Shown here in pieces: positions 17,541 to 54,050 of a stretch of DNA of 64,000 bases. The stretch comes from Uranotaenia lowii (lineage: Eukaryota; Arthropoda; Insecta; Diptera; Culicidae). The stretch spans positions 165,212,031 to 165,276,030 of the forward strand of contig NC_073693.1 of assembly GCF_029784155.1 (NCBI RefSeq), given 5' to 3'. The notes under the pieces were generated by a model. It did no database searches, had not been told where the DNA came from, and was given only the letters and a program-made list of their open reading frames with translations. A program made the translations under genes and the position numbers. The stretch's first letter is position 1; each line of letters opens with the position of its first letter.

Positions 17541-18603
17541 TACCTGAATTTCTTGTACAACTTTGATACTCAATCTCCGCAAAAACAACGACAAGATTAA
17601 AGTCTCAAAGCCCTGCAAAGAGAAGACAATTTTATTAGCAGAATTTGGTGGTGAATTCATGGTCTTAACTAATTTCAGAAAGAGGAGCTTGCTCATTTTT
17701 ACGTGACTTTTTTTGTCTTCCACTCTTGAAGAAATACTTTTGGTTAATATTTTAACAGAATTGTGATTGTGAATTTGTTCATTGTTATTTGCTTAGGGAA
17801 CTTGAGATTTTTTATTTCTAAATATAAATAGAGAACAACTTCCAGGAGATCAAAGGCGTGTTTTGTAAAGTTCTGTTTTATTTTAGAGAAAACTGTTAAC
17901 GTTAAAATTCTGGCTCCATAATCACTGTTTCAGAAAAACATATCACAGGTTGCATATGAATAGATGTTATTTTTATATTATCAGTGATCCAAATCACATG
18001 ACACATCATTTTTTCATTGTTCAATTGTATCAGAAATCAAATAGGTACACCAGAACTGTACCCCCTCTCGCAACTCCGAATACCTTTTGTGATATTGTGT
18101 CCCATTTTCGAGGTTTCAAATTATTCTTTTCATTTTGCCCGTGGTAATTGTACACACTGAATCAATAGTGGAAATGAAATTAGGATTAATCAGAATCAAT
18201 GTAACCGGCCTCAAAGAAAAACAAAATTCGACAAGGAAACTGTCATCGTGCTGCTTGCCACCCTCAAGGTGTTGTGCAGAGCGATCCCCATCCATCATTT
18301 TCCAATCATGTTCATCAGTTATGACAGTGATTGAATTTATCGCTCCTTCCAGGACACAATCGAGAAAAATAAAATAAATATTTCGAGCACGGATGGTTTC
18401 GTTTATGCAATCTTGCCAGCCAACCAACCAGTCGAGGACGAAGCTAATTAAATTCTTTGCCCTGCGCGAGTTACGTGAAATGTGGCTGACGGAGGCTGAG
18501 GTGAAATTTTACGTAAAGTGACATTACATCGAAATTCTGAATTGAAATTTAATTTTCGCGCGAAGAAAAGTGACTTTGATGTTGATTGTTGTTAACTATC
18601 AAA
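17541..18603. other. Region upstream of TRPA1 first exon A
   Basis: From about 18130 to 18500 the DNA is less AT-rich than its flanks, and it lies immediately 5' of the first coding exon at 18604. It probably holds the promoter and 5' UTR of the first TRPA1 isoform group, but I cannot pick a unique TATA or initiator. Minus (18116-18427) and + (18135-18377) frames overlap here and resemble no protein I know. Confidence 0.4.
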
Positions 18604-18753
18604 ATGTATAGCAGAAAATCGTTGCGGCACATGTTACGAGATTGCTATCCTGAGAACACGCTGACAATCGCAACGCCACTGAAAATTCCGGTCAACTGGA
18701 GTCGCGTCCTGCGGCTGCAATCGTCGCGGATCAATCCGGAAATTGTGCTGCAG
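18604..18753 (+). CDS. TrpA1: TRPA1 alternative first coding exon A
   Basis: Encodes 50 residues, MYSRKSLRHMLRDC... to ...INPEIVLQ, then a GT donor (CAG|GTAACT, phase 0). The motif PLKIPVNWSRVLRLQ matches the N-terminal stretch of the canonical insect TRPA1 form (basic, with a Trp-x-Arg-[VI]-Leu-Arg core) just before the first ankyrin repeat. TRPA1 is a tetrameric, non-selective cation channel of the plasma membrane of sensory neurons that responds to heat and reactive electrophiles. I chose the ATG at 18604 because it has an AAAATG context and the upstream in-frame codons give no family-like sequence. It joins in frame to exon 2 (GCG GCC GAA...) at 33106, across an intron of 14.4 kb. Alternative first exons with different N-termini are known in fly and mosquito TRPA1 and change its sensitivity. 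Confidence 0.88.
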
Positions 18754-19485
18754 GTAACTGGATTCACATCATTTTCGAACATGAAATTAGGGTTTAGTCA
18801 ATTTATTACTTTACTTACCAATTGAATAATCTGCTATGTCTGCAACGATGCGTTTAATTTTAAAAATTCAAACAAGATGAAAGAGAGCTTATTTCACGAT
18901 AATTTCAAAAAGCCCTACGAGAAGAAAAGATTATTTTTCAGGAGCGCCTTACAAACCTTCATCCGTAGATTCAGGCTTCTATTCCACTTCAAATAAATTC
19001 AGATTTTTCTAAAAAAAAATATTTTTTGATCTTGGGTAATTGGCCTGCCTTCGACCAGACCGAACTGAGCGCCATGAGAAAATTTGAAAACAACAGAAAC
19101 TAAATCTCGAGTAATACATATCTTACATCGCAAAACTGAATACCATTGACTAAAATGAATTCCTTGAATTATAAACTATTTATTTAAGCTCATAAACATC
19201 TAAGATTTTGTGCCTAGATGAAAATATATGCACATAAAGTTCAAGTGTATCGAAAAAATGCTGATGGCGTTCAGTTCGGTCTGGTCGAATCCCGACCAAT
19301 TAATGGATATGAGATAGGTACCCCAGAGCTCCAGCAACAGTTTTGGTTCTATGAGTTACTGAAAATGCGCTATAAATCAACATTTTGTTTTATTTAACAT
19401 TTTATCATCTTTAAAACATTTGTATATATACAAAAGACCCTAAACACGATCAAAAGAATCTCATTTAGCCATAAGGTATCAGAAG

Positions 19486-33105: not shown

Positions 33106-33352
33106 GCGGCCGAACAAGGAAATCTCGACGAGTTCATACGACTGTACGAAGGCGACAACAGTCGACTGGGGGTGAAAGACAGCAAGGGACGTACCGCAGG
33201 TCATCAGGCCGCCGCCCGAAATCGAGTCAACATACTTTCCTTCGTTCACGAGCAGGGTGGCAATCTCAACGCCCAGGATTTGTTCGGCAACACTCCGCTT
33301 CACGTGGCCTTGAAAACGATTCGCTCGATGCTCTGGAGTTCCTGTTGAACGT
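33106..33352 (+). pseudogene. TrpA1: TRPA1 exon 2 (ankyrin repeats 1-2), with an apparent 1-base frameshift
   Basis: Starts after the acceptor TATAG with AAEQGNLDEFIRLY and continues through DNSRLGVKDSKGRTAGHQAAARN and RVNILSFVHEQGGNLNAQDLFGNTPLHVAL, clear insect TRPA1 ankyrin sequence. In the printed frame it then reads KTIRSMLWSSC and stops (TGA 33346-33348). Reading one base earlier from about 33316 gives NDSLDALEFLLNV, exactly what the family predicts, and the donor (AACGT|GTAAGT) then leaves phase 2 to fit exon 3. So one base is missing near 33311-33316 (TTGAAAACG). The homopolymer location, and otherwise intact exons, suggest a sequence or assembly error or a rare allele rather than a dead gene. 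I typed it as pseudogene only because the printed frame is broken. Confidence 0.88.
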
Positions 33353-33983: not shown

Positions 33984-34179
33984 ACCTGTCGAGACGAACT
34001 TACTAAACGAGAAAAAGCTGGCCCCAATCCATCTGGCCACCGAGCTCAACAAGGTCAAGGGGTTGCAGGTGATGGGCAAATACAGAAGCGTTATCGACAT
34101 ACAACAGGGAGGCGAACACGGCCGCACGGCCCTTCATCTGGCTGCGATCTACGACAACGAAGAGTGTGCGCGAATTTTG
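33984..34179 (+). CDS. TrpA1: TRPA1 exon 3 (ankyrin repeats 3-4)
   Basis: The exon contributes the last base of a split Val codon, then 65 codons: PVETNLLNEKKLAPIHLATE, LNKVKGLQVMGKYRSVIDIQ, QGGEHGRTALHLAAIYDNEE, CARIL. Two ankyrin helix-turn-helix signatures (APIHLATELN and TALHLAAIYD) are visible. It starts after CTCACAG and ends at TTG|GTAAGT in phase 0. The sequence is intact and strongly insect-like. The following intron is 14.1 kb. Confidence 0.95.
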
Positions 34180-34660: not shown

Positions 34661-34700
34661 TACTATCTTTTCATGAATCTTTTTTATCATACCGTCTATC

Positions 34701-35085: not shown

Positions 35086-35600
35086 CTGGGTAAAGATTTT
35101 TTTTTAATTCAAATAGTTCTTTATTGAAGGCCATTTACTTTTACAAGTTTCATAGGGCCGGGGGTCAATTATACAAAGCAAAAGTGGGGGGAGGATCGAC
35201 GGAAGGTCAGGATTTAGGAAGGGATGAGGAATGAGGATAAGTTTTGATGCGATTTGCACTCCGTGAACGGGTCAGAATTGGACAGTTGTCTCCAACTTTG
35301 GGTAGACGATTGTCTTCCATATTTTCTGTCGGCACGGGAGGGGGCGGCTGTTATGTGATTCTTTTCCTAGGGGGGGAATCAGCATTAAACACGGGAATTG
35401 GGTTTGCGGTGGCTGCTGTGAAGCGATCTCTTTTCTCTATCTCCTTGCTTGTTTGCTGCTGCTGTTGATTGTCTTCTTGTTGAATCGGAACTTCTCGTTG
35501 TCCGCTTGCTGGTCTGGTTGTTTTGTTCGGTGCAGATTGTGTGCTTCAATTTGTCTCTTTACGATGTCGGCGTATGATGAGTTGGAATTATTATTGTCAA

Positions 35601-37461: not shown

Positions 37462-37831
37462 CCATTCTGGGACAGTTCGCCCAGGATGGTCTCCTCCTCA
37501 TCACCGCTTCACTGACTCACGCATCCAACAAAAAAAAATCAGTTGCCTTTTAGATCCGAAATAAGCACACTCTTAAAATGCGACTGGTCGGCTCGAAGGA
37601 AGAGAGTGAACTTAAAGATTTTTACGGCATTGAAAATTTAAAAAAAATGTACATCTATTGTTAGATTTTCTTAAATGTTCTTTGAGAATTAAAAACTTTA
37701 CAAAACTATCTCACGATGTGAGAACTATGTCATCATCATTTTGTTATCACTTAAACTTTTTCAGTTTATATTTAAATAAAAATTGAATAAGAGTTGTGGT
37801 ATACAAATGTTTCATCTAACCCTGCTGTTAC

Positions 37832-38060
37832 ATTAAGGTTGCCAGATTGCCCGGTTTTATTCGAGTTGCACCGGATATTTAATACAAAATTTGGGAACAG
37901 TCCGGCCCGGCCCGGTTGCCCATATTTTATTGAAAAAAACCCGGATATGGCTTGGATTTATTCACTTTATTTGGCGAATGAGGATTTTTTCCTCCACAAA
38001 ATTGTAAAATTTTATTTATTTTTACGACTTAGAAACACATGCATTTTATCAGATTTCCTA
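37832..38060 (+). repeat. Left part of a GCCCGGATTT-family element
   Basis: TTAAGGTTGCCAGATTGCCC, then TATTTAATACAAAATTTGGG and GGATTTATTCACTTTATTTG match 2185-2320 closely, so this is a second copy of the 2181-2600 family. Its right part was interrupted by the 38061-38793 element and is not clearly recovered afterwards. Confidence 0.8.
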
Positions 38061-38793
38061 CACGCTCTTTTTTTTAAACTCAAAATAAAGTATTTTTGGT
38101 TCAAAACAGCACTTCGATGGCTTCCCTCAACTTTGAGTTCGACTGGGCAATAGCAAAACTAAGTTCTGATAGGCGTACTCAATACTAAGTTCGGCAGCCG
38201 AACTCGGATTTATCCTTTTTTTTTCGAGGGTAGCTGATTTTCAGGGAATTAAAGGATGATTAAAATTTGTTGCACCCGGATGTTGCTGTTCCGGTACATT
38301 GCATTGCAATTACAGAGCGGTGGAAAGTTTTGACATTCCCGATCAAAGAAAACTTCCGGATGTTACTTCCCACGGGAAGTAAACAACATCCGGAAGTTTC
38401 CGGACATTCCAAGCCGCTCACCATATGATGACAATGACGGACAGAATTTTACGCTGACACGGTGAACATGCATTTCATTATGAAGTTCCTTCATAGTCTT
38501 CCGGTAATTGTTCCGGAACGACATAATTTTGCGACGTGTTCGTTGGTTGCTGTTCCGGTTCGGACTGAACTCGCTAAGTGTTTTCAGTCCAACAAAGAGA
38601 GTTCAATTTTTAGTTCATAAGGTCGAACTCAGCTTTGATCCCTCGCCGAAGGAAAAAAAGGGATCAATTTTGAGTTCGCAGTTCGAACTCCGTTTTGATC
38701 CATCGCAAGGAGGAAAAAAGGGTAAGTTCATAGAATCGTACTATGTTTTGAACCTCGGTCGTACTTAATTTTGAGTTAAAAAAAAAGAGCGTG
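38061..38793. mobile_element. Non-autonomous TA-flanked element with GAGTTCGAAC motifs
   Basis: Ends CACGCTCTTTTTTTTAAACT and (right, complemented) CACGCTCTTTTTTTTTAACT, flanked by TA at 38059-38060 and 38794-38795. Subterminal units of the type AGTTCGAACTCNGNTTTGATCC recur, mainly at the right. A 48-base near-perfect hairpin (38351-38398) lies in the middle. No transposase. Confidence 0.88.
38351..38398. repeat. Long hairpin
   Basis: AACTTCCGGATGTT pairs perfectly with AACATCCGGAAGTT, and inside it ACTTCCC pairs with GGGAAGT, leaving a tiny loop. It is a cruciform-capable palindrome within the 38061-38793 element. Confidence 0.93.
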
Positions 38794-39077
38794 TACATTA
38801 TTATTTTTCCAGTTAGATTTGGTTAGATTTTTTTTGTGCTGCAAACACTCTATAAAGCACGAAAATAGTGCTTTTTACCTCCTTTGATAAGTACCTTTGT
38901 TTCCACGTGGTAAGAAGCATGCGCTACCTGCATATTTGAGTGCAATTGTTCGATCATTGTTGGTTTTCGATGCAAAAAAAGAGATTTTTTGTCATTGTTT
39001 CTTTCATAACTCTTGAAGGAGTTGTTGGCCCACTTTGGTGTGTTCTGATGAAAGTTTCATCATTCTATGGGCTATAC

Positions 39078-41530
39078 CAGTGGTCGGCAACCTTTTGAGA
39101 CAGAAGAGCCAAAAATAGCAAATCAAGGAAATGTCCAAGTTTCAAAGAGCCGCAAATCATTTTATCCTTACTACAAATAATGGTGATCGCTAAGATACAT
39201 GCATCCTGATGTTAACTCAGTTTTATTACCATTTTTCACAACGCCACAGATTTTCGTTGTTTATTGGCAAACGGAAGAGATTTTCATTCTTCTGAATCAA
39301 CACATTTTCATAACGGGTACAGCTTAGTAACGTTGAAATTTTGGCGATTTACCATTGTGACCTGATAAAATTTATCATTTTAAACTTTGGTGCAATTCTT
39401 TTCCTACACCTATTCCTAGATATAAAAAATAGACTTTCGATGTGTTCTGTTGAAATATTAAAAAGAAGCATTGAAAATTTTATATCATAAAAATGCATAC
39501 TACACGATGTAAATTAATATAAAAAAAAACTATACGAGGGTTTGTCTATTTTATTTTTCTTCAAATTCTACAAATAAGCCTTCAATTTTTTTTGGTTATA
39601 AACATCCGTTAAAATCCATTGAGATTCATTTGTTTGTTATGCGCGTAAAACTATCATTTTAAATAGAAAAATATTTTTCGAGCCTTAGATTAAATAAACC
39701 AACAAATTTTAATTCATTAATGGATATTTTACGGATTGAAAAAAAAATAGTCAAAAAATTAGTCTATAAAAAATGGTTATAAAATTTCTTTTAAATTTTT
39801 GTCATTACAAGCCTTCCGATTCAGCTCTCTAGTTCTCATTTTGATTTCTGATAAAATAAAAAAAAAAGGTTTCAAAAATTATATTTTTTGATAACGAAAA
39901 TTTAAGTTTAAATTTTTATTCTGTTCAAAATCGTAACCCTTCCAAGTTGTTTCTTCTCCATACTAATGAAATCTCAAAAAAAATGTCTAAACCTCTGAGT
40001 TTCAAATATATCATGGATTCAGATTGATCCTTCTGTCAAAGTTTCTATGAATTCACAAGTTCATATTTTAAATTTTTATACAATTAGTGATTTGGAATTT
40101 AATCTATTTGATTTTTTCAAACAGATATTTTAATTTGTTGAATGAATTCTCAGTTTTCACTTGCGAATTTGTAATGTTAAACATTATAGTAGTTTGTTGG
40201 CGGTTCCCTGGCCGAAAATCTTAACCAATTTTATTTATATAAGATTCGTTATGTGAATAATTTATTCTAATTTTTCCATATTTCAAAACAAAACAATTTT
40301 TAATATTTCAAAAAGTCGAAAAAATATTTTTAAAATACTTTTAATTCTTGACAGATTTACTGTATTTCAGAGTATCTAGGATTTTTGGAATAGTCAAGAA
40401 TAGATTCAACCGATGATGTAGAAATATGCTGGGATCCGATGAAAGTTTTGATAGCTATCTCGGATCTCCCATAACAATAATAAATCTTACATGATAATAG
40501 ACATCGAATTTTGACTTTGCTTCGCTGTATTTCATTTTTTAACGAACAGATTTTTAAACTCAAATTTTAGTTTTTTGACGTTATTTTGATCATCACTTCA
40601 TAGAACAAACCAAAACCAAAATTCTGATAAAGAATTAGAAATCAACTTTTAGAACAGTCATGACGTTTAAAAATAATTGCAGATTAGGAATTAAATTAAG
40701 AATTTAAAAAAAAAAGATGTAAAAGTTATTAGAAAATAGATATTAATGTTTATGGAGGAAAATGCTTCTTTACCCAATAAAGTTTCTCCTTCGAATAAAT
40801 TCTTAAAAATATTCATATTATACATGAAATTCTAAAATAAGACCAGCACTCAGACAAAATTTTTTATTAACAAACTTGAAACTTTTGTTCACTTGAACTC
40901 ATGTTCAAAATTAGAACGAAGAAATTGATTTTTTTCATGAATTTGAAAAGGAACATTGAGAGATGGAGTTCAATATTTGAAAAATTAAGAAAGAAATTTT
41001 GATGCACAAAACAATTATTATCAGTATTCAAAGCATTATTAAAGTCATCATCTGATGTTCATATTTGATCAGAACGGTGGAAAAGCAAATTTGTTTTTGA
41101 AATATTCAATTCAAGAAAAACAAACTCAATTGCATAATCTTAACAGTGAGGACTTTATTTGACAATTAAAAAATGTTCGGTTTTTATCCGATTAAATCAG
41201 AAAATCAAATTTGACGGATAACTTCCCATCCCCCGAAGAAAAATTTCTCCACGCTTCCAAATGCTATATCAGACTTTTATGAAGAACGTTCACGGATTTC
41301 TAAATTTCAACTGGGTTGCAATCTGACAAGATGCTGTTAATTTGTTCTATTTATAGTAGTTCTTTTTGAAGCCTGGGAAATATTATCTGAACTGGAGGAA
41401 CTTATGTTGCGCCCGTTTACACTAGAAAATTTCGAGGATTTTCAAAATTTTCACACATTGAGCTTAAGAGCCGCAGTTATACATCCAAAGAGCCGCATGC
41501 GGCTCGCGAGCCGCAGGTTGCCGACCTATG
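39078..41530. mobile_element. Non-autonomous hAT element (CAGTGGTCGGCAACC)
   Basis: Left end CAGTGGTCGGCAACCTTTTG; the complement of the right end is CATAGGTCGGCAACCTGCGG. An 8-bp target duplication with one difference: GGCTATAC (39070-39077) and GGCTATAT (41531-41538). Both subtermini are rich in AGAGCCGCA motifs and the right end has GCATGCGGCTCGCGAGCCGC palindromes, a widespread animal hAT terminus. The interior is AT-rich, without transposase, and includes a diverged copy of the 54270-54725 repeat at 40200-40620. Confidence 0.93.
40200..40620 (+). repeat. Diverged copy of the 54270-54725 repeat
   Basis: Shared modules in the same order: TTTTGGAATAGTCAAGAATA versus TTTGGAATTGTCAAGAATAA, GGGATCCGATGAAAGTTTTG versus GTGATCCGAAGGAAGTTTTG, then CGCTGTATTTC and AACTCAAATTTTAGTTTTTT. 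It lies within the hAT element at 39078-41530. Confidence 0.75.
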
Positions 41531-42360
41531 GGCTATATAATGATATTTTTAACAGAATATTCGGTGATGCAGACGGTACTTTTAAACACCATTTGAAGTT
41601 TATTTACAATTTTTCATATTAAATTTCATTACCTAATTTTTTAATATTTTATTTGAAAAGCTGATAAAATTTCAGTACGTTTGATGCGCTATTTTATGAT
41701 TTGCGTTGAAAATACCAGAGTAATGTAGCTTTGAAATATGGTTTTATTTAATTAACAAAAAAGTCTAACCAAATCTAACTCGAAAAATAAAATTGTTAGA
41801 AATCTAAAAAAAATACAAGTGTCTTAAGTCGTGGAAATGAATCAAATTTTCAATTTTGGGAAGATCTGAAGACCCCCGACACAATCTTATCAGATAACAA
41901 AAAAAAATCCACTAATCAAACTAAAAAAAAAAACAAATTGTGTAGTATTTTTTTTTAATCTGACAATTAAGCTAGCAAAATTTTATTATGTAGTATCTAA
42001 ACAGAAAAGAGAAATAACTTGAGGCCAAATTAGTGTGGAATTAGTGTCGATTGTAGTTAAAACGTGGTCGAGTGTTCTTCGAATTATCGATTAACTGATT
42101 TAGCCACGTGTTACCGTTTAGTTCAGGAGGTATTTAGTGAAGATAACTAACGTAAACTTTAGATTTATGAATCTTTACTTTCTAAGCTAATTGCATGCGA
42201 ACTGGTGCTAAGATACCGTATTCCGTCTTTCATAATTACAGTTCATATACTTCGATGGGTAAAAACGTGTCGAGTACATAATAACGGCTAGCTGATTACT
42301 AATATCCCTCAGTTCTCGTCATTATTTAAGGTGCACTACGAACGAACATAGGATAATCAT

Positions 42361-43828
42361 TAGACTAGTTCACTTTTCGGCTTTTGCGCAGATCAAAGCC
42401 GGACTCATATGGATTGTTCCTCATGCATTTTCAAGTATTTCTGCCAAATTTGAGATCTATTGGACTAATTTCTGTTCTGCGCAATGAGTTTTTGTAAAAA
42501 AGGCCATTTTTCTTGAAAATTTTCTTATAAGAGTTCTAGAAAGCCCCTGTTGATATTAAATGATAATTTTAGAATGCATGGTGGTTGATATTATTAGCTA
42601 TTTTATGGATCTGTTTTAGATAATCGTTCAAAACAAACCGAAAAAATTTCAAAAATCATAAACTACCAACTTGTACAGAAATTCTACTTACAAGTTGAAG
42701 GTTTAAAATCTACAATAAATCTGAAAAAAAAAATATTTTTCACAAAATCTTTTCTTGTTAATATAGCCCTGAAAGCCCTGTTTATTATCAATCATTTGAT
42801 GTATAAAATTTAATTATCGCAAGAATAGGAGCAAAGTTATTCAAATATTAATGCATCAGTTTTTAAATCATAATTATGTTCCTATTCAAGTTTTAGCTTC
42901 ATGCAACCTGAAAAACGTGGCATCAAGAGAACTTGCATATAACTTGATCAAAGCGCGCGCTTTTTTTACTCCTGGCCCAGTTTTGGGGTAGGTACTAGAT
43001 TGAATAAAATATTTTTGCTTGCGCACAAGTTGGTGAGGAGAAAACTTGAATGAAAAATATTTTATCAATTCAAATTTGTTGCAAACATCTGTAAATAACT
43101 TGATCGCTATATACCCAATTTGTATGTTTATTACATCAAAAGAAAGGTAATAAAAAGGGCTAGCTTTACAAGAAGAGCTTTTGCGAAAAATATTTTTTTC
43201 TAATTTACTGTACATTTTTAACTTTCAACTTGTAAGTAAAATTTCTGTTCAAGTTGGTAGTTTATGATTTTTTAAATTTTTTCGATTTGTTTTGAACGAT
43301 AATCAAAAAAAGATCCATTAAAATGCTAATAATATCAACCACTGTGCATCCTTAAGTTATCGTTTCATATTAAAAGGGGCTTGCTAGAACTCTTATAAGA
43401 AAATTTTCAAGAAAAATGGACTTTTTTCACAAAAACTCATTGCGCAGAACAGAAATTAGTTCAATCACAGAGAACAGACGTACAAGCTCGAACAAAAAAT
43501 CGTCAAAAAAGTGTGTAAAATTTCAAATGCTATCACCAAATAATACGATAGAAATCGACTGCAAACAGTGCCATCTATAGCGCCGTTCAAAAGTCACAAA
43601 TCAACTTTAAAGTGCCCAGTTTTCGAAAAGGCGTAATCATATATAACCTCACAAAAAATCAAAAAGGGTGTTGGGATTTTTACACAAGTTTCGTGGGCTA
43701 GCTTGTACGTCTGTTCTCTGTGGTTCAGTAGATCTCAAATTTGGCAGAAATACTTGAAAATGCATGAGGAACAATCCATATGAGTCCGGCTTTGATCTGC
43801 GAAAAAAGCCGAAAAGTGAACTAGTCTA
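42361..43828. mobile_element. Palindromic hAT-like element
   Basis: A perfect 8-bp duplication ATAATCAT at 42353-42360 and 43829-43836. Ends TAGACTAGTTCACTTTTCGG, inverted at the right. The arms (about 42361-42760 and 43190-43828) are inverted repeats of several hundred bases, giving a foldback structure. The right arm carries a nested 257-bp MITE (43466-43722) that is absent from the left. A minus frame at 42886-43215 in the loop has no recognisable domain. Confidence 0.9.
43466..43722. mobile_element. 257-bp MITE nested in the palindromic element
   Basis: Inverted ends CACAGAGAACAGACGTACAA and (right, complemented) CACAGAGAACAGACGTACAA, identical over at least 22 bases. Flanks GTTCAAT (left) and GTTCAGT (right) suggest a 7-bp target duplication with one change. 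The empty site is preserved in the left arm at about 42459-42478, confirming the insertion. Confidence 0.92.
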
Positions 43829-44084
43829 ATAATCATTCTACGGTGGGGTTAATTGGCCCTTTCTCTAACAGTAATCCTTTAACATAACCTCAAACTGTTA
43901 CAGATACCTACACCCAGCACAATGCACATTGAATTCATTTCAGATTCGTTGCAGTTGTGTGGCTGACCACTGACTGTAAGTCAAATCAAATTGTAACAAT
44001 CAAGTATATTTGTAAAGTCGAACCTATTTTTTGGAATTTCATATTTTTCGTAAAGGACCTAATAATAAAATAGGTTGATTGGGT

Positions 44085-44215
44085 TGATCTGGGTTTTAAC
44101 AAAATTTAGGTCGGATTTTAGGTCGTCTATTTAGAAATCAAAGCCCGGATTTTTTCAGGTTCTTTTATAAAATTTCTCTGATATGTCCGGTCAGGATACG
44201 TGCTGGAAAAAAAGC
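44085..44215 (+). repeat. Right-end fragment of the GCCCGGATTT family
   Basis: AAAGCCCGGATTTTTTCAGG and TGTCCGGTCAGGATACGTGC match 2529-2579 (GCCCGGATTTCAGATAACAT, TGTCCGGTCGGATGCGTGCT). Confidence 0.7.
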
Positions 44216-45366
44216 AACCATTTGCTCCCTGAGTATATTTAAGATTTTATCAGTATCCTTAGTTACGAAAGATTATGAAAGATTCCATTCATTCTATAAA
44301 TGGCTTTGTAACGCTACAAACACCTTTCTCATAAACCTACGGTAAGAGCTCATCCCAGATCAACCATTTTCATTTTTACTGTGTGTCAGTGTCATACAAA
44401 AATACTGCCACCGGGATACTTGTCCGTGTTGTACCAGGTGACTTATCCAGTAGGACTTATCAACGCTTCAAAATACCTTGAATTCGGCAAATTTCAACTG
44501 CAATGGATCCTTTCAAGAGGCGGGCCAGAAAATCAAAAAAATACCTTAAAACGGGGCATCATGCAACAGCAAGGTTAGATGAATCATTTGTATACCATAA
44601 CACTAATTCAATTTTTATTTTGATGTTATGTAATAATGTTATCATTTAATGATAACAAAAGGATGATGAAATGGTTTCTCAAATCGTGAGAAATTTTTCA
44701 ATCATTTTCGTTTAATTTTCAAATTTTTAATCATTTTTTTAAAATATCGAGCAATAGATGTAAAATTTTTTACATCATCCTATACCAACAAATGATTTTC
44801 GTTCAATCACCTATTTTTTATAAATATTTTTATAATTCAGTTTTCAGTCTGGGCTAAAATGCAACAAGATGCAAATCAAAGATTCACCTTTCAAATCGCG
44901 TATCCATGATTGTTTTGCATCGCGCATTTGTTAACATCAAGATTTCATCCATTAAAACAATAATTTTCATAATTTTAGATAGTTGAATATTTTGTAGTAT
45001 TTTTTACTCCTAAATATATGCAGCACCCTTACACTTAAAAACATTTTTGACAGAAAAAATATATAATTTAATTCGAGCAAAACCAAAAATTACTGCTTTT
45101 GGTGCTTTGTGCGTTATGACATCATAAAAATATTATAATCTATAAATTTTTAAACGTTTTCATTTGATTTTTCATTGAAAACAAAGTTTTTTGCTACTTA
45201 CCCCTTTTTCTAAGTAGGGTGAAAATCGCATTATTTTTTTTTTATTTTAGAATAACTAATGAAAGCAATAATTTTCTGATTACGTCAATTTTATATTACA
45301 TAAACCTTGAAACTTTTTATGTACAAACGTTATGATTATCTGTTTACATTAAGTTTTTAGAAGCCA

Positions 45367-46673
45367 GTTCACGTCGGGCTCTAGACGCGCACGGTTCGTT
45401 CAGGTCATTCTGCTTATCTGCCGGCAATGTTTTTCAATGGTCGAGTTATATTAGAAAGACGATATTGATTCTAAAGTGCATTTGAATAGTGTTTAAGTTG
45501 GGTGTTATTTTGTCAATTGAATTTCTTCTTTGAATGAAGAAATGTTTAAATATTGTGACAATTTCTAAGTGAAGACTCCGTTTGATTCCTGTTCAAGTTC
45601 GATTGTGTGCGTGTTATTGCAATTCGCATGATGGAGTCGCGGCGCAGCCTGCCTTGTCCAAACGGGGGAATGGACAGACGGCTGAGTTGATTCATTGAAA
45701 AATGACGCTTATGCGCAAAGTGTTGTGTGATGTGTGTAAATGTGCTCTGTTAATCTTCACCTACTTTTTTGCAATGAAATGAAAAAATAATAATTTACTC
45801 GTGTCGGGTTTCAATAAATAATGGAAGTTGATTTTTGGAATAATGGTGTGGGCATTGTATGCGGGTGGGGTTGGACCATCAGAGTTTGTTTTTTGAATTG
45901 AATAATATGTGCCCAGTTCATGAGGTTTCAAATGATAAAACGAGATGGAAAAAATTAGAATTTGATTGTAGAGGAATTTATATTGTAAGTAATTTGAATT
46001 GTTTATTAGAAGTGTATTAATGTTAAAAAAGCACAAGGCCAGAGGCACGCAGCAAACAGGTGACGGCGAGGACGTGATGACGATGAGCGACATGCTTGGA
46101 ATATCAAATTGAGAATGGCGTATTAAAAATTGGTGAGATCGTTTCATAATTATTTAATAATCTTGAACTTTTTTGTAAGACTATAATGATCTACGTTGAG
46201 CATCCTTATATATGTGAAATCTAGAACCTTCTACAGATACGGCACAGTTGCAAACTAGTACCGATAACATTGATGTGCAAATGCAGTGACACACCGAATT
46301 GCCATGTATCCTTTTTAATAATTTATATGTGCTTTATCAATATTATTTATCTGTATCATTTTAACTAATTTGTCATGATTCATTATTTTATATTCAAATA
46401 TACTATTCATTCTTATAATATTATTAACCGTAATTTTCCGAATTTTCAAGATCTATACATCTTTAGAAGAAATGCATCTGGGGATAACCTAAAGAAATAT
46501 TGCAAGCGGCACGGGTAGCCGGCCATTGTAGGTTTCTAAGGGTTGGATGCCTTCCTTCGACGAACCATCGGACCGTGGAAGCCCTAGAAGAAATTCGAAG
46601 GCCAAGCCACACAGACATAGGCAGGACCTTGCTACCGATGGGGGAACCATACATACATACATACATACATACA
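45367..46673 (+). mobile_element. Non-LTR retroposon with a 22-bp target duplication
   Basis: A 22-bp direct repeat, TACATTAAGTTTTTAGAAGC plus CA, occurs at 45345-45366 and 46674-46695; part of the match at its first bases may reflect the TACA tail. The element starts GTTCACGTCGGGCTCTAGAC, a GC-rich 5' end with CGGTTCGTTCAGG downstream as in internal promoters, and ends with a GC-rich 3' region (46490-46648) and a (CATA)n tail (46649-46673). The middle is AT-rich with no reverse transcriptase, so it is a non-autonomous or internally deleted copy moved by a LINE recognising the CATA-tailed 3' end. Confidence 0.88.
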
Positions 46674-46679
46674 TACATT
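46649..46679 (+). repeat. (ACAT)n tail
   Basis: About seven copies of CATA/ACAT that form the 3' tail of the 45367-46673 retroposon. Confidence 0.95.
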
Positions 46680-47270
46680 AAGTTTTTAGAAGCCATTTAA
46701 GTTGAAACGTGTTTCATGATGCCCCAGTTGACGGTACGTTATTTTATTGCATCAGTTATTGCTAGATCCAAATAAACCGTTATCCTGCTTGTGCTTACTA
46801 ATTAATCAAATCGAACCACCTGAACAACTAGTGACAATTTATGGACAAGCTCAATACATGTCTCCTGTTAGTTGCGAATGCCTCTGACGATGCCCGGTGG
46901 CAATTTATCCGTAAATGTCGTTCCATTTTTGGGTTATGTTCGATATCTCATCTTGAAGCTGAGAATTTTCCTATAAAATGTTCTACGCCGGGTGGTCCTT
47001 TAAGGTATACGTCTGTGAGTTTGATAGGGGAGTACCGTCAATAGCGAAAAATTCTACTTTTTAAAGATTTTTTTTTTAATTTTGTAGCGGCCCCCCACAC
47101 TCCCCCATGCCTAAAAGCTCATTTGAGCCCCTTGGCAATGGACGCTACTGTTCTCAGCACGTCTGGCTGTAACAAAAAATATAAAAAAAAAACGCAAGCA
47201 AAATTTTGCTCATGCTGAGAACTGAAATGTTCAAATTAAATATAGTGCGACGAAATGTAATGATAATAAT

Positions 47271-47960
47271 AAATTGAATACTACATGGATCTCAATGAAA
47301 AACAGATTTCCTTTAAATATATCCACTATTTGATATTATTGCTACTAAGCGAAAATTTAATAAAATAAGTAATCATAATTAAAAAAAAACAAAAAGAAAT
47401 TAAATTGCTACAAAATTTACAAAAATATAATTAGAAAAGAAGAAAACTGGTAACTGATCGAAAGTTTTTAACGATTCAATTTTTCTTTTAATAGCTGTAT
47501 TACCTTGATTTTGAACGTGGAACGGTTGTTGATGGTTTTTATTTCTTAAGAGATTATTTTTTTGACCTAAGGATGTCATGAATCGGCTTCGTTGTAGAAA
47601 ATCTGACTGGCGAGTGTTATGAGTACGCAATTCCGTTGTAAAATGGATGTTTTTATTACTGAAATTAGTGTGTAAATTGTTGTAGACATATATTATAGTT
47701 TGTAAATCACAAACGTCGTTTAATTGAAGAATGTTATGCGCTCTTAAGGAGTAGAGCTGTTGGGTAGGAAAGAGCAACGGGATTCTATAAATATTTTTCA
47801 AGCATCTATTCTGTAGAGTTTGAAGTTTTTGTAAATTTGACAAGATTACAATGCTCGGTCGATTTGGCGGAATTCGTCTAGCTCTAAGCCTGCTGAAGTT
47901 GTGAATTCCGATCTGCACGGCTTCAAAACATAACGGAGGATCCGGTGTTTAGTGGTTAGA
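47271..47960 (-). pseudogene. Non-LTR (CR1/Jockey-type) RT C-terminal fragment
   Basis: The minus frame 47918-47400 encodes LQKLQTLQNRCLKNIYRIPL, LFPTQQLYSLRAHNILQLND and later LRTHNTRQSDFLQRSRF, the typical C-terminal tail after the RT thumb of CR1-like LINEs (the QNRCLK and HNTRQ signatures). Upstream RT motifs are missing, so it is a 5'-truncated copy, and I cannot find its exact 3' end in the A-rich sequence below 47400. It is a different family from the 11308-12500 fossil. Confidence 0.85.
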
Positions 47961-47970
47961 AGCATAGGTC

Positions 47971-48005
47971 CTGAAGTTACACTCAAAAAAGAAGTGTAAC
48001 TTCAG
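47971..48005. repeat. Perfect 13-bp hairpin upstream of TRPA1 exon 4
   Basis: CTGAAGTTACACT and AGTGTAACTTCAG are separated by a 9-base loop, about 300 bases before the exon 4 acceptor. It could be the edge of a small mobile element or an RNA hairpin in the intron. Confidence 0.9.
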
Positions 48006-48305
48006 AATAAATCCGAAAAAACTTATTTCGATTTTTTAGCTGAAAAACGTGTGACGCTCCCTTACTCAAGTTAGCCGCTCAGATTAGCCACACGTTGCAA
48101 ATCTTGGAATCTCCCTCTTTTTTTTCTCGCTCCGAGAACTTCTTTGGGCCTGGTTAGTAAAACTACCAAAATGAGTGTGGCGACCAACGTGGTCAAGGAG
48201 GTCTCAACATATAGCTACATGTATATAAATAAGAAAATTCATGCGTTTTTTTTATTTGAGAGTAATTTATGCAAGTTTCTTTTTTTTTCAATCATCATTA
48301 TATAG

Positions 48306-48602
48306 ATTTCTGAATTCGGTGCCTGTCCACGAAGACCATGCAACAACGGCTACTATCCGATACACGAGGCGGCAAAGAACGCCAGCTCCAAAACGATGGA
48401 AGTGTTCCTGCAATGGGGTGAATCGAAGGGTTGCACCAGGGAAGAGATGATTTCGTTCTACGACTCCGAGGGCAATGTGCCCCTTCACTCGGCCGTCCAC
48501 GGTGGCGATATCAAGGCCGTCGAACTTTGCCTGAGATCAGGGGCCAAGATATCAACGCAACAACATGATCTTTCAACACCCGTCCACCTGGCGGCGGCTC
48601 AG
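48306..48602 (+). CDS. TrpA1: TRPA1 exon 4 (ankyrin repeats 5-7)
   Basis: 99 codons in phase 0 on both sides: ISEFGACPRRPCNNGYYPIH, EAAKNASSKTMEVFLQWGES, KGCTREEMISFYDSEGNVPL, HSAVHGGDIKAVELCLRSGA, KISTQQHDLSTPVHLAAAQ. It starts after TATAG and ends CAG|GTGAGC. Three ankyrin motifs are visible (YYPIHEAAKN, NVPLHSAVHGGD, STPVHLAAAQ). The linker GCTREEMISFYDSEG is a hallmark of insect TRPA1. Undamaged. Confidence 0.96.
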
Positions 48603-48659
48603 GTGAGCATTTCTGTTTGTAGAGTAATCTTAAAGGTTTGTATGAGTATTTTTTTCTAG
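48603..48659 (+). other. TRPA1 intron 4 (57 bp)
   Basis: A minimal insect intron, GTGAGC to TTTTTTTCTAG, in contrast to the 14-kb introns elsewhere in the gene. Confidence 0.93.
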
Positions 48660-49469
48660 GGTGCTATCGAAATTGTCAAGTTGATGTTCTTGATGCAGCC
48701 GCAGGAAAAGCGCATAAGTTTGAACTGTACAGATATACAGAAGATGACTCCACTGCATTGTGCCGCCATGTTCGATCATCCGGAGATCGTCGAATATCTC
48801 GTTCAGGAGGGTGCCGACTTGAACGCCTTAGACAAAGAAAATCGATCCCCGTTGTTGCTTTCGGCGTCCAGAGGAGGATGGCGTACTGTGATGATTTTGA
48901 TACGATTGGGAGCTAATATTTGCTTGAAAGATGTCAATTCTAGGAATGTACTGCACCTGGTCATCATTAATGGAGGCCGGCTGGATGAATTCGCCAAAGA
49001 AGTATGTTGCACGCAATCCGAAACGTATCTGTTGTTGCTTTTGAACGAAAAAGATGACACCGGATGCTCTCCTCTACACTACGCCAGTCGTGAAGGTCAC
49101 ATCCGGTCGCTCGAGAATCTGATACGGTTGGGTGCTTGCATTAATCTCAAGAACAATAACAACGAAAGTCCGCTGCATTTTGCGGCTCGATTTGGACGTT
49201 TTAACACTGTCCGTCAGTTGTTGGATTCCGAAAAAGGCACATTTATCATCAACGAAAGTGACGGTGAAGGACTTACGCCTCTGCACATCGCTTCCAAGGA
49301 GGGGCACACTAGAGTGGTTCAACTTTTGCTGAACCGAGGAGCTTTGCTGCACAGGGATCACAACGGGCGGAATCCTCTCCATCTGGCAGCCATGTCTGGC
49401 TACACACAAACTATTGAGCTGCTCCATTCGGTGCACTCGCATCTGCTTGATCAAGTGGATAAGGATGGG
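48660..49469 (+). CDS. TrpA1: TRPA1 exon 5 (ankyrin repeats 7-14)
   Basis: 270 codons, GAIEIVKLMFLMQPQEKRIS to ...LLDQVDKDG, phase 0 on both sides, donor GGG|GTAAGC. It carries a run of ankyrin signatures: MTPLHCAAMFDHP, RSPLLLSASRGG, RNVLHLVIINGG, CSPLHYASREGH, ESPLHFAARFGR, LTPLHIASKEGH, RNPLHLAAMSGY. This is the core of the cytoplasmic ankyrin stack that carries thermal and chemical gating information. The sequence NLIRLGACINLKNNNNESPL is diagnostic for dipteran TRPA1. No stop or frameshift. Confidence 0.97.
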
Positions 49470-50026
49470 GTAAGCAATTTGCGTTGACTCAAATATTAAA
49501 TTTCAATATTCTTATCGAAGTTTCACATTCAATAATCAAGAAAAATGGCACATTCCAGCTTTATATGGCTGCGTACGTTTTATAATAATTATAATGTCTT
49601 CTATTAACTTTTACTTTATGACCTCAACACATCATAAGACTTGCGGTTTAAGCGTTACATTAAAAAATAACCTTCCTGTGCTAATGGTTGACACTTTCTT
49701 GTTACAGAAGAATTCGCCTCATTAAAGCAAATAATAATATGTTCGAAAATCTGAGTTAGAAATACGAAAACAGTAAAATTTCTTGGAAAGCATCTCTTCA
49801 AGAGGAATTATGTATTTCGTGTTTGTTTAGGCGAGGAATGTTAAGAATGGATTTGAATAAAAGCTAGGACTGTAAAATAACTTGTTTTATGTGTTTTGGC
49901 GTTTCCCAGAAAAAAATTAAAGAAATCATTTAAACTTACTAGGTAAAAATGAAATGAAAACTTTAGTTTAAACAATAATTTGAAACCAGCTTACTTAGTT
50001 ACATTCTCTAAACAACCTCTTCACAG
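49470..50026 (+). other. TRPA1 intron 5 (557 bp)
   Basis: GTAAGC to CTCTTCACAG. AT-rich, no feature seen. Confidence 0.92.
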
Positions 50027-50341
50027 AATACAGCACTGCACCTGGCGACGATGGAAAATAAACCGAATGCAATTGTTTTGCTGCTCACTTTGGGTTGTAA
50101 ACTGTTGCACAACTATATGGACATGAGTGCCATCGACTATGCCATTTACTATAAATATCCGGAGGCAGCTCTGGCTATGGCCACCCATGAAGAACGAACG
50201 GCCGAAGTGATGGCTCTAAAGTCGGACAAACATCCGTGTGTGACGCTCGCCCTGATTGCTTCCATGCCGAAGGTCTTTGAAGCCGTCCAGGATAACTGTA
50301 TCACCAAGGCCAACTGTAAGAAAGACTCGAAGAGCTTCTAC
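50027..50341 (+). CDS. TrpA1: TRPA1 exon 6 (last ankyrin repeats and start of the pre-membrane linker)
   Basis: 105 codons: NTALHLATMENKPNAIVLLL, TLGCKLLHNYMDMSAIDYAI, YYKYPEAALAMATHEERTAE, VMALKSDKHPCVTLALIASM, PKVFEAVQDNCITKANCKKD, SKSFY; then donor TAC|GTAAGT in phase 0. After repeats NTALHLATMENKP and SAIDYAIYYKYP comes the linker. Cys in KHPC and in QDNC align with human TRPA1 Cys621 and Cys641, two of the cysteines modified by electrophiles, so chemical sensing should be intact here. The alignment is from knowledge of the family, by eye. Confidence 0.96.
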
Positions 50342-50583
50342 GTAAGTAACAATTTGTAGTATACAGACAAGATCTTCTGAAGGGTGTATACAGCAATTTG
50401 AAGAATAAGTGAACGAAATTATATTACATTCGATATCGGATGATTCACTAATAACTTTATCATGAATAATGTTTTTGAAAAAGAAAAAAGTATACGCCCT
50501 TTGAAGTAATGCTTGTCGATTGTCGTCACCATACGACGCTGATCCCGAAATAATGACATCTCAATTAACGAGAAAACCACTAG
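50342..50583 (+). other. TRPA1 intron 6 (242 bp)
   Basis: GTAAGT to ACCACTAG. The acceptor is preceded by a purine-rich stretch (CGAGAAAACCACTAG) rather than a good polypyrimidine tract, which would make exon 7a a weak, regulated exon. Confidence 0.85.
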
Positions 50584-50694
50584 ATAAAATACTCCTTCAG
50601 CTGCCTGCAATGCCCTGCTCTATACGCCCAGATGGACGCAAAAACGGGTGACGCCGTTCAGATCTCCAAACCAATTCCCTTGCCTGCGTTGAAT
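50584..50694 (+). CDS. TrpA1: TRPA1 alternative exon 7a (linker cap, 37 residues)
   Basis: Encodes IKYSFSCLQCPALYAQMDAK then TGDAVQISKPIPLPALN, phase 0 on both sides, donor AAT|GTAAGT. It is the cassette between the ankyrin stack and the first membrane segment. In Drosophila a single 37-residue cassette at this place is chosen by mutually exclusive splicing and strongly changes heat responses. The motif LQCP aligns with human YLQCP, whose Cys665 is electrophile-reactive. A second cassette with the same ends lies 425 bp downstream. The downstream exon is outside the window. Confidence 0.93.
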
Positions 50695-51119
50695 GTAAGT
50701 TGGATCATGAAAAAAGAAGCATGATACCAATTTTTGGTCATTTTTTATCAATATTCTCACCTAATCTATGCATGATCAATTAACAGTTTATCAATTTATT
50801 CTTTAATTCACTGATATATGCATGCAGTCAATTTACTAATCGCGACCACCCAATCGGATGTAAACTAATCTGGACATCTTTCCCATTGCATGCCGATAAC
50901 AGGCGCCAAACTACGCAAACGATAGAGCAGCGAAACATTACCCACTTGTCTAGTAATTTTCTCGATATATGTCCCACTTGATGAGCAAAACCTAAAGTAT
51001 CCCGTCTAAAGTTCTCTCCCACAATCCCATCATTTGCAGAGCTGATACACGACAGTGTATCCTTGTTCGTATTGTTCATTTTGGCTTCTTTTCTCCTTAC
51101 ACTTATCGCCAACCACCAG
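50695..51119 (+). other. Intron between the two alternative cassettes (425 bp)
   Basis: GTAAGT at 50695 to AACCACCAG at 51119. The 3' end has a good pyrimidine tract (TTTTCTCCTTACACTTATCG). An overlapping minus-strand frame of 136 codons (50828-51238) covers exon 7b and is a shadow. Base-pairing between this intron and exon flanks could enforce mutual exclusion, but I see no obvious docking pair. Confidence 0.85.
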
Positions 51120-51227
51120 ATCAAATATTCCTTCCACGCATACCAGAAATCCAAAGAAGAGGTCGAAAAAATCCGGATTACGCTCAACGATCCCAACTGG
51201 CGTCCACATCCTCTACACGTGGCTAAT
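51120..51227 (+). CDS. TrpA1: TRPA1 alternative exon 7b (linker cap, 36 residues)
   Basis: Encodes IKYSFHAYQKSKEEVEKIRI then TLNDPNWRPHPLHVAN, phase 0 on both sides, after CACCAG and before AAT|GTGAGT. It begins with the same IKYSF as exon 7a and ends with a similar PL-x-x-x-N, as expected for a duplicated cassette; the middle is quite different, charged and without cysteine. Including both cassettes would keep the frame and add 73 residues, so exclusion must be imposed by splicing control. Choosing 7b removes the Cys665-equivalent residue. I identified it from splice phases, sites and shared ends. Confidence 0.9.
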
Positions 51228-51616
51228 GTGAGTTGCATGCTTGTTGTTCACTGCTTCACTGCTTTTTGATTTGGGAAGAAAAATGCTAGCAATAAAATAT
51301 TTTAATGTGTGTTTCTGCAATCTTCTCGCTACGGCACCATCTAGGTTAAAACTAAGAAATCAAATTTATAGCATTTCGTTTCTTGTCAACATACTGTTGT
51401 GTAAGCGCATCCAGATGCAACATAACGTGAAACTTAATATTGCCAAGCGAGGGTAATCTACTTTGACACTCTGATGGTGGCTCCTGAGAGCAAATATTAC
51501 TGATGCTTGTTTTTTCTGTGCAGACTTTACGTGTTATATCTTAGTGTAGTCTTAAAATGTATGCAATAAGCCTCTCAAAACATTTGTGGATTTTGATGAA
51601 ATTTACAGTATAAGTA

Positions 51617-52703
51617 CAGACCCCGTTCGATTTTGGCAACACGCCCGTACATTTTGTGTTGCCAAAATCGAATGAACAATTTTTTATTTCTCATCTTTTT
51701 TTCAGTTATTTTTACAAAATAACTATTATTCTTATCAAAAACGTTATTTTTAGTCAATTTCCGACCATTTGTAGTCATTTTTTAATTTTTCTCATCATGT
51801 TTTTGATGCATTTTGCACCATTCTTGCTTTGTTTATAATGTTTGTTTTCTTTTGTCATATTTGCTGTTTTTGACATTCTTCATCATTTTTTAGTTGTTTT
51901 TTATCATATTCAGTCTTTTGTTTGAATTTGTTTTTAAACTTTTTAAATTTTTCACCTTTGTGTCATTTTTGAGTACTTTATACAATTTTAAAAAATCTTT
52001 GGTTTTTATTGATGTATTTTATCACCATTTCAGAACAAAAAAACGTATTTATGGTGTTTGTCTAAATTAAATTGGTCCTGTTATAATGAAAACTAAAAGG
52101 TAATTATGTTTCTAAAAAGCTACAGACCCCGTTCGTTTTTGGCAACATTCGATTTTGGCAACATTCGATTTTGGCACATGTGCCTAAATCGAACGGTATT
52201 TAGAAACAACATTACCTTTTAGTTTTCGTTATAACAGGTCCAATTTTATTTACACAAACACCATAAACACGTTTTTATGTTCTGAAATGGTGATAAAATG
52301 CAAAAATAAAAACAAAAGTTTTTTTAAAAATTTATAAAGTACTCAAAAATGACAAAAAAAAAGAAAAATTAAAAAAGTTAAGAAACAAATTCAAACAAAA
52401 GGCTGAAAATGACAAAAAACAACTGAAAAAATGATGAAGAACGACAAAAACAGCAAATATGACAAGTGAAAACAAACATTATAAACAAAACCAGAACAGT
52501 GGAAAATGCATCAAAAACATGATGAGAAAAATTAAAAAATTACTACAAATGGATGAAGATTAACCAAAAATAACGTGTTTGACAGTTATTTAGTAAAAAT
52601 AACTGAAAAAAAAATTGAAAAAAAAAAACCGTTCAATTTTGGCAACATTCGATTTTGGCAACACAAAATGTACGGGCGTGTTGCCAAAATCGAACGGGGT
52701 CTG
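51617..52703. mobile_element. 1.1-kb palindromic (foldback) element, TA target, CAGACCCCGTTCG family
   Basis: Ends CAGACCCCGTTCGATTTTGG... on both sides, flanked by TA (51615-51616 and 52704-52705). The arms (about 51617-52105 and 52195-52703) are inverted copies of almost 500 bases, and the centre (52120-52200) carries another terminus copy with GTTCGTTTTTGGCAACATTC. The TTGGCAACA/TGTTGCCAAAATCGAA motif is repeated at each end. No transposase; a second, smaller member lies at 58693-59112. Confidence 0.92.
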
Positions 52704-52729
52704 TATTTTTACATTAACATTCAACATAT

Positions 52730-54050
52730 TTATTTTTTTTATTTTCTTTAATTTTTTTTTTTATTTTTATCTTTATTTTATTAGTTTTTTTTTAAATTAT
52801 TTTTTATCTATTTTTTCTTATTTATTTTTTTAAATTTTTTTTGTATATCATTTTTTTAATTTTATTTTATTTTATTTTTTTTATATTTTATTTTTTTAAT
52901 TTTTTTTATTTTTTTTTTATTTTTTTATTTTATTTTATTTTATTTTTTTATTTTATTTTATTTTTTTATTTTATTTTTTTTTATTTTACTTTTTTTTATT
53001 TTATTTTTTTTTATTTTACTTTTTTTTATTTTACTTTTTTTTATTTTACTTTTTTTTATTTTACTTTTTTTTATTTTACTTTTTTTATTTTACTTTTTAT
53101 TATTTTTATTTTTTTATCATTATTTTTATTTTTTTATTATTATTTTTATTTTTTTGATTATTATTTTTATTTTTTTATTATTATTTTTTTTTATTATTAT
53201 TTTTTTTTTATTATTATTATTTTTATTTTTTTATTATTATTTTTATTTTTTTATTATTATTTTTATTTTTTTATTATTATTTTTATTTTTTTATTATTAT
53301 TTTTATTTTTTTATTATTATTTTTATTTTTTTATTATTATTTTTATTTTTTTATTATTATTTTTATTTTTTTATTATTATTTTTATTTTTTTATTATTAT
53401 TTTTATTTTTTTATTATTATTTTTATTTTTTTATTATTATTTTTATTTTTTTATTATTATTTTTATTTTTTTATTATTATTTTTATTTTTTTATTATTAT
53501 TTTTATTTTTTTATTATTATTTTTATTTTTTTATTATTATTTTTATTTTTTTATTATTATTTTTATTTTTTTTATTATTATTTTAATTTTTTTATTATTA
53601 TTTTAATTTTTTTATTATTATTTTTTTTATTATTATTTTTTTTAATATTTTAATTTTAATTTTTTTATTATTATTTTTTTTGATATTTTAATTTAAATTT
53701 TTGTTTAATAAATGTTTTAAATTTTATTTTTTTAATTAATCTTTTTTAGTTTATTTTTTTTATAATTTTTTTAATTGATATTTTTAATTTACATTTTTAA
53801 ATAAGTTTTTATTAAATTAATTTTTATAAGAAAATTTTTTAAAATTTGTTTTTTATTTTTTTTTTATTAATTTTTTTAATAATTTTTTTTAGGGAATTTT
53901 TTTAAGTAAATTTTTTATTATTTTTTACTTAAGTTTTTTTTTTAATTTTTTTCTTTAATTTTTTTTCTTTATTTTTTTCTTAATTTTTTTTCCTAATTTT
54001 TTAATTTTTATATTGTTTTATTTTTTTATTTTTTATTTTTTTATTATTTA
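52730..54050 (+). repeat. T/A low-complexity block with near-complete absence of C and G
   Basis: About 1.3 kb of T-runs interrupted by A on this strand; G and C appear only sporadically (for example TATTTTACTTTTTTTT units at 52985-53095). The long + frames through it (52841-53653, 53154-53606) give Phe/Tyr/Ile/Leu repeats and are not genes. Confidence 0.98.
53215..53570 (+). repeat. 20-bp tandem array (TTTTATTTTTTTATTATTAT)n
   Basis: About 17-18 copies of the exact 20-mer in perfect register, so lines of the sequence repeat every 20 bases. It looks young and homogeneous compared with the flanking T-rich DNA. Confidence 0.97.

What the first reader, a model, noticed from the sequence alone, without database searches (positions are those of the whole stretch)
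50584..51227. Two mutually exclusive-looking TRPA1 cassettes, one lacking the Cys665-equivalent
Exons 7a and 7b share phase 0/0, nearly equal length (37 and 36 codons), the same start (IKYSF) and a similar end. In Drosophila this position is a known alternatively spliced 37-residue cassette that sets heat responsiveness. Here only 7a has LQCP, matching human Cys665, so splice choice may tune electrophile as well as heat sensing.
Basis: partly seen in the sequence, partly recalled or inferred. Interest (0 to 1): 0.8.

Follow-up and report, generated by a model that had tools for sequence, protein, structure and literature searches.

The report
Mosquito TrpA1 alternative exon pair, known
A mosquito gene for the irritant- and heat-sensing channel TRPA1 carries two interchangeable short exons, only one of which has a cysteine known from the human channel; the same swap is already described in fruit flies and mosquitoes, and a published fly test found that losing that cysteine does not weaken irritant sensing.

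Summary
In detail: 50584-50694 (111 nt) and 51120-51227 (108 nt) are two in-frame exons of a mosquito TrpA1 gene; only the first has LQCP, aligned to human Cys665. It is already known. Aedes aegypti TRPA1A/TRPA1B differ by 111/108-nt exons at this place (PMC6934445), Anopheles gambiae has exon 6a/6b (PMC11471635), Drosophila exon 10a/10b. The cysteine point is in print too: fly C694 (human C665) is lysine in dTRPA1-C, as in 7b here, and C694S and C694K channels kept their N-methyl maleimide response, C694K with larger currents (PMC10073219). In Anopheles gambiae the b exon lowers EC50 (12.7 versus 43.8 uM), the reverse of what loss of a reactive cysteine suggests; some other comparisons show no or opposite differences. 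In 147 parsed insect proteins the cysteine is present in 77 of 81 a-type and 2 of 95 b-type cassettes; the Cys621 and Cys641 equivalents lie in the shared upstream exon. Mutual exclusion cannot be read from DNA: both exons are multiples of 3, and 29 of 147 predicted proteins hold both. An upstream ankyrin exon shows a frame change (assembly error or lesion).

The parts
50584..50694 (+). Cassette 7a (a-type; LQCP; homologue of Drosophila exon 10a/12 and An. gambiae exon 6a)
   Evidence: translation and splice borders; 92% to An. stephensi and Toxorhynchites cassettes; aligns with 7ykr_A 685-721
51120..51227 (+). Cassette 7b (b-type; Lys at the Cys665 column; homologue of Drosophila exon 10b/13 and An. 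gambiae exon 6b)
   Evidence: translation and splice borders; up to 72% to other b cassettes; tblastn E 1.8e-12
50611..50613 (+). Codon of the Cys665-equivalent (Drosophila C694) in 7a
51147..51149 (+). Lysine codon at the same column of 7b
50027..50341 (+). Exon upstream (exon 6): last ankyrin repeats and start of the allosteric nexus; holds equivalents of human Cys621 (codon at 50237) and Cys641 (codon at 50297)
   Evidence: equivalence counted by hand, and for Cys621 it agrees with fly C650
48660..49469 (+). TrpA1 ankyrin-repeat exon
   Evidence: Ank matches; tblastn
48306..48602 (+). TrpA1 ankyrin-repeat exon
33984..34179 (+). TrpA1 ankyrin-repeat exon
   Evidence: the start used was one base early
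33106..33352 (+). TrpA1 ankyrin-repeat exon with a change of reading frame near its 3' end
   Evidence: borders read by eye; tblastn
18589..18759 (+). First coding exon, as in An. stephensi TRPA1 isoform X5 (extent of the tblastn match, not exact exon borders)
   Evidence: tblastn 67%, E 1.7e-17
50695..51119 (+). Intron between 7a and 7b, 425 nt
   Evidence: RNA fold no stronger than shuffles, z -0.82

Best explanation
[quoted passage not shown] They arose by an ancient tandem exon duplication. A transcript normally takes one of them. Shown here: identity, borders, homology, and the Cys-to-Lys difference. Inferred from published work on relatives: 7b gives a channel that responds at lower electrophile doses and 7a the less sensitive one, with heat effects that differ by species. 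The difference comes from the whole cassette changing how the nexus is coupled to the gate, not from removal of a reactive cysteine. The Cys621 and Cys641 equivalents are in the shared upstream exon, so both isoforms keep them.
For: Exon pair with the same lengths (111/108 nt) in Ae. aegypti; exon 6a/6b of An. gambiae with 6b left-shifted to NMM; Drosophila exon 12 in isoforms A/D and exon 13 in B/C, isoform A (1197 residues, C694) matching 7ykr_A with LQCP; C694 replaced by Lys in dTRPA1-C, and C650S, C694S and C694K all NMM-responsive; C-type EC50 for AITC overall lower than D-type in Scaptomyza and Drosophila. Own survey: a-type cysteine 77 of 81, b-type 2 of 95, Lys at that column in 59 of 95 b cassettes; in 43 orthologues chosen from the 150, C650 is at least 90% conserved and C670 invariant, numbered as in fly P0028.
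Against: No transcript or functional data for this species or gene. Published comparisons do not all agree with b being more sensitive: PMC10073219 says in its introduction that the four fly isoforms respond similarly to electrophiles; fly EC50 hardly differs between 10a and 10b (13.6 versus 14.1 uM), only the low-dose response does; in PMC6934445 An. stephensi TRPA1C was less chemosensitive than TRPA1A while Culex TRPA1C was more, forms that by the fly naming differ at the N-terminus too; fly C and D forms have similar menthol sensitivity. Heat effects conflict between Drosophila and Aedes. The nexus is predicted with low confidence (block means of pLDDT 31-69 over the cassette) and the loop is missing from the fly cryo-EM maps, so the coupling step is inference.
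Confidence: 0.75

Rival explanations
1. One reading: 7b channels respond less to electrophiles because the Cys665-equivalent is missing.
For: 7b lacks the cysteine; human C665 is one of the modified cysteines, as cited in PMC10073219; An. stephensi TRPA1C was less chemosensitive than TRPA1A, though its exon content was not seen and the N-terminus differs too.
Against: C694S and C694K keep the NMM response, C694K larger; b-exon channels are more sensitive in An. gambiae and the C-type in Scaptomyza. Two b cassettes, of Sitodiplosis (P0066) and Lycorma (P0117), carry a cysteine at that column.
Confidence: 0.06
2. The pair is mainly a heat switch: 7a heat-responsive, 7b not.
For: Drosophila isoforms A/D (exon 12) reported temperature-sensitive, B/C not (PMC5666710 passages).
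Against: Swapping the pair in Ae. aegypti gave comparable heat responses; canonical C- and D-type isoforms all responded to heat in oocytes.
Confidence: 0.12
3. Not strictly exclusive: transcripts with both cassettes are a regular product, perhaps a weak or silent subunit.
For: Both exons are multiples of 3 and phase 0/0, introns of 242 and 425 nt leave room for splicing; 29 of 147 parsed insect proteins hold a then b.
Against: Most of the 29 appear to be predictions, and frame-preserving exons invite gene finders to chain them; fly and mosquito cDNAs are described as one or the other.
Confidence: 0.1
4. The gene in this assembly is broken upstream, so the splice choice has no protein consequence.
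For: In the ankyrin exon 33106-33352, three of nine orthologues queried match in a second frame from about 33306; two end at 33318 and four run on at 54-61% identity.
Against: The later exons in the window are open and, cassettes apart, 87-94% identical to five mosquito orthologues, which fits a sequencing error better than a decayed gene.
Confidence: 0.05

Closest known systems
Aedes aegypti TRPA1A / TRPA1B middle exons (Li et al. 2019, PMC6934445)
   Same: Same place between last ankyrin repeat and first membrane segment, same lengths 111 and 108 nt
   Different: Species; Aedes has cDNA and channel recordings, this window has none
Anopheles gambiae TrpA1 exon 6a / exon 6b (Du et al. 2024, PMC11471635)
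   Same: Alternative exons encoding the same domain (called BAT there)
   Different: Function measured there: 6b more NMM-sensitive
Drosophila TrpA1 exon 10a/10b, also numbered 12/13 (TAC, BAT or nexus loop)
   Same: 37- and 36-residue cassettes; Cys694 in one, Lys in the other
   Different: Residues between the ends of the cassettes diverged: 7a 58% to fly a-type P0102 and 7b 57% to fly b-type P0028
Human TRPA1 Cys665 (A-loop)
   Same: 7a aligns with the LQCP stretch of TRPA1 chains taken to be human (species recalled)
   Different: Whether the human gene has an alternative form of this segment was not looked for

Membership tests
TRPA1 (TRPA subfamily) channel gene | Long N-terminal ankyrin-repeat domain orthologous to insect TRPA1 | tested here: met
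   Ank Pfam matches for exon 48660-49469; 91.8-95.7% identity to twelve mosquito TRPA1 proteins over joined exons 33985-50341
TRPA1 (TRPA subfamily) channel gene | Six membrane segments and ion-transport domain | tested here: inconclusive
   tblastn with nine orthologues found no such exon between 51231 and 64000; the gene appears to run past the window; the own genome could not be searched
Insect TrpA1 alternative exon pair (10a/10b, 6a/6b, 12/13) | Two tandem exons of about 37 and 36 codons, same phase, after the last ankyrin exon, a-type first | tested here: met
   a-type comes first in the 29 two-cassette orthologues, judged by eye on the listings
Insect TrpA1 alternative exon pair (10a/10b, 6a/6b, 12/13) | a-type LQCP...PLPALN and b-type YQKS...NDPxWRPxPL consensus | tested here: met
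Insect TrpA1 alternative exon pair (10a/10b, 6a/6b, 12/13) | Mutually exclusive use in transcripts | not testable with these tools
   No RNA data; DNA alone neither enforces nor excludes it
Cysteine-dependent electrophile switch at Cys665 | Loss of the cysteine lowers electrophile response | not testable with these tools
   No recording for this gene; published Drosophila mutants speak against it

The most novel reading that the evidence does not exclude
Across winged insects the duplicated exon has been kept as a cysteine-to-charged-residue switch inside the electrophile pocket of TRPA1, giving each gene a low-threshold irritant receptor (b) and a heat- or high-dose receptor (a); in many orders a third form with both cassettes in series exists and damps the channel, and beetles, sawflies and stick insects have lost b.
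Probability: 0.2. Interest if true: 0.45.

Novelty: already known. Interest (0 to 1): 0.18.

Why it matters
TRPA1 is a target of irritant repellents in mosquitoes (PMC8764911 passages), and which cassette is spliced in can change the dose response. The case here adds one more mosquito to a known pattern. What it adds of its own is the survey: the pocket cysteine is present in nearly every a-type and absent from nearly every b-type cassette sampled, while published fly mutants show the cysteine is dispensable there, so the conserved difference needs another explanation.

Tried and rejected
Looked for a third cassette by motif: none following an AG. Looked for a stable RNA fold between the exons that might enforce exclusion: energy no lower than shuffles, z -0.82, 18 of 100 shuffles as good; without other dipteran genome DNA covariation was not tested. 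Scanned Rfam at gathering scores: 0 matches in the window. Genome contigs holds bacteria and archaea; its two loci are 27-30% identical and were not used. AlphaFold models of the full-length b-type P0028 (Drosophila melanogaster) and a-type P0102 (D. simulans) have low confidence in the nexus (pTM 0.46 and 0.47); the b model shows a helix at 696-705 (block pLDDT 60-69), the a model no helix of four or more in its cassette (31-43); I draw no conclusion. A regex with a few motifs recalled for downstream exons found nothing, nor did tblastn. Dropped before the cassette count: 3 of 150 proteins could not be parsed (P0076, P0080, P0084); by eye, P0084 (Timema) has an a-type cassette with LQSP, no cysteine at that column. 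P0140 was moved from b to a, and P0072 split into a and b, by hand. The survey saw the best 120 of 217 and the best 120 of 255 hits, clustered at 90% identity, so absence of b in an order is not proof of loss, and non-insect arthropods were not reached. The donor used for the first ankyrin exon was wrong and that row is not used. Searches that bear on what is in print; Zhong et al. 2012 and Gu et al. 2019 were not held and are known here only through other papers.

Full report
What is there. The window carries the 5' and middle part of a TrpA1 gene on the + strand. Over the joined exons from 33985 to 50341 the protein is 91.8-95.7% identical to the twelve mosquito TRPA1 proteins compared, best Aedes albopictus (95.7%), against 81.6-88.6% for the seven other insects; a FastTree tree puts it on the culicine side of the split from Anopheles (support 0.948; its place within is weakly resolved). 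A first coding exon matches at 18589-18759, and ankyrin exons start at 33106, 33984, 48306, 48660 and 50027. tblastn with nine orthologues finds no membrane-segment exon in the remaining 12.7 kb, so the gene appears to run past the window.

The two cassettes. 7a is 111 nt and 7b 108 nt, both phase 0/0 with AG before and GT after. They share IKYSF at the start and PL..N at the end; the global alignment score beats all 5000 shuffles, and 98 of 5000 shuffles reach it when IKYSF is left out; profiles of 67 distinct a and 68 distinct b cassettes align end to end (hhalign probability 74%, P 3.4e-6). The simplest origin is a tandem exon duplication (inference). 7a has a purine-rich acceptor (7 of 18 pyrimidines against 12 for 7b and 12-15 for the four exons starting at 33984, 48306, 48660 and 50027) and a donor with 8 of 9 consensus matches against 7 for 7b, so 7a inclusion may need help; this is a count, not a measured strength.

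The cysteine. phmmer against solved structures aligns 7a with residues 685-721 of 7ykr_A, whose length (1197) and C694 fit the fly TRPA1-A of PMC10073219, and with the LQCP of other TRPA1 chains; counting along the printed alignment the residue is 665 in 7or0_A (species of the chains recalled). 7b aligns only through its first residues and has lysine at that column. The Cys621 and Cys641 columns fall on cysteines of the upstream exon, at 50237 and 50297 (counted by hand), so both isoforms keep them.

Survey. Two protein searches retrieved 150 insect TRPA1 proteins (the listed best 120 of 217 and best 120 of 255 hits, overlapping). 147 of 150 could be parsed: 81 have an a cassette, 95 a b cassette, 29 both. 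The cysteine is present in 77 of 81 a cassettes (66 at column 10, and 11 of Lepidoptera at column 9 of a cassette that I take to lack one residue; 63 of 67 distinct ones) and in 2 of 95 b cassettes (2 of 68 distinct): Sitodiplosis and Lycorma. The b residue at column 10 is Lys in 59 of 95. Cysteine anywhere: 80 of 81 a, 14 of 95 b; the 14 include the mosquito Malaya, at column 33. The four a cassettes without the cysteine are from Condylostylus, Timema, Leptidea and Bemisia; the unparsed Timema P0084 looks like a fifth. Drosophila and other close relatives are over-represented. b cassettes occur in cockroach, termite, Orthoptera, Hemiptera, thrips, Lepidoptera, a caddisfly, a flea and Diptera (names, orders from general knowledge; cassettes). 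None was seen in 9 beetle rows, 2 sawfly rows or the 2 parsed of 3 stick-insect rows. Non-insect arthropods were not reached.

What it does. Du et al. 2024 (PMC11471635; parts 1-2 of 4 of the text and passages read) show by RT-PCR in Drosophila that TrpA1(A) uses either exon while 10b was not detected above background with TrpA1(B), and that in An. gambiae the 6b form has an NMM EC50 of 12.7 against 43.8 uM; in the fly the EC50s are alike (14.1 and 13.6) and the b form differs at low doses. Wang et al. 2023 (PMC10073219; passages and one section read) name C694 as the C665 equivalent, note that it is lysine in dTRPA1-C, and find C650S, C694S and C694K all NMM-responsive, C694K with much larger current density, and heat responses mostly retained; their introduction also says the four fly isoforms respond similarly to electrophiles. 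PMC8541009 (passages) states that C694 is spliced out in isoforms B and C, and that C and D, which differ only in exon 10, have similar menthol sensitivity. The Scaptomyza preprint PMC12132172 (passages and one section) finds EC50 for AITC overall lower for the C-type than the D-type and suggests that this is general in Diptera. Li et al. 2019 (PMC6934445; passages and one section) cloned the 111- and 108-nt forms in Ae. aegypti and saw no difference in heat response; in the same paper TRPA1C was more chemosensitive than TRPA1A in Culex but less in An. stephensi, and An. gambiae TRPA1D and TRPA1A were alike, forms I could not resolve to single exons. In Drosophila the catnip response was seen in TRPA1C and not TRPA1A, two forms that differ also at the N-terminus (PMC8764911 passages).

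Reading. The cassette as a whole can tune electrophile response, in the cleanest mosquito comparison with b the more sensitive, and the cysteine itself is dispensable in the fly channel. I take the nexus loop as a coupling element whose swap shifts the dose response (inference; the loop is absent from the fly maps, and poorly predicted). Exclusive use is plausible from relatives but untested here.

Verdict. A correct reading of a known exon pair in a further mosquito; low surprise.

Noticed in passing
window 33106-33352: Reading frame of the ankyrin exon changes near 33306-33315: three of nine orthologues match on in a second frame, two stop at 33318, four run on at low identity. Assembly error or lesion upstream of the cassettes.
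   Followed up: partly
window 51594-52726: Fold-back element of about 1.1 kb in the intron after 7b: nested inverted arms of 81, 52, 168 and 201 nt at 84-91% complementarity, containing TACAGACCCCGTTCGATTTTGGCAACA.
   Followed up: partly
window 50559-50583: Acceptor of 7a has a poor pyrimidine tract (7 of 18) compared with 12 for 7b and 12-15 for four other exons of the gene.
   Followed up: no
proteins P0066 and P0117: b cassettes of Sitodiplosis and Lycorma carry a cysteine at the Cys665 column, the two exceptions among 95.
   Followed up: no
proteins P0111, P0115, P0118, P0137, P0138, P0141, P0142, P0143, P0146: All nine beetle rows retrieved have only an a cassette, shortened to 31-33 residues in P0111, P0115 and P0118; b may be lost in beetles (capped hit lists).
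   Followed up: no
29 orthologues such as P0006, P0083, P0132: Proteins carry both cassettes in series, a then b; artefact of gene prediction or a real third isoform.
   Followed up: no
window 36967-37497 (-) and 47400-47948 (-): Reverse-strand open frames that look by eye like remnants of mobile elements; no Pfam match at E 0.01.
   Followed up: partly
window 52727-53700 and 34294-34662: Long low-complexity tracts, T-rich and CTCTTT-like, inside TrpA1 introns.
   Followed up: no
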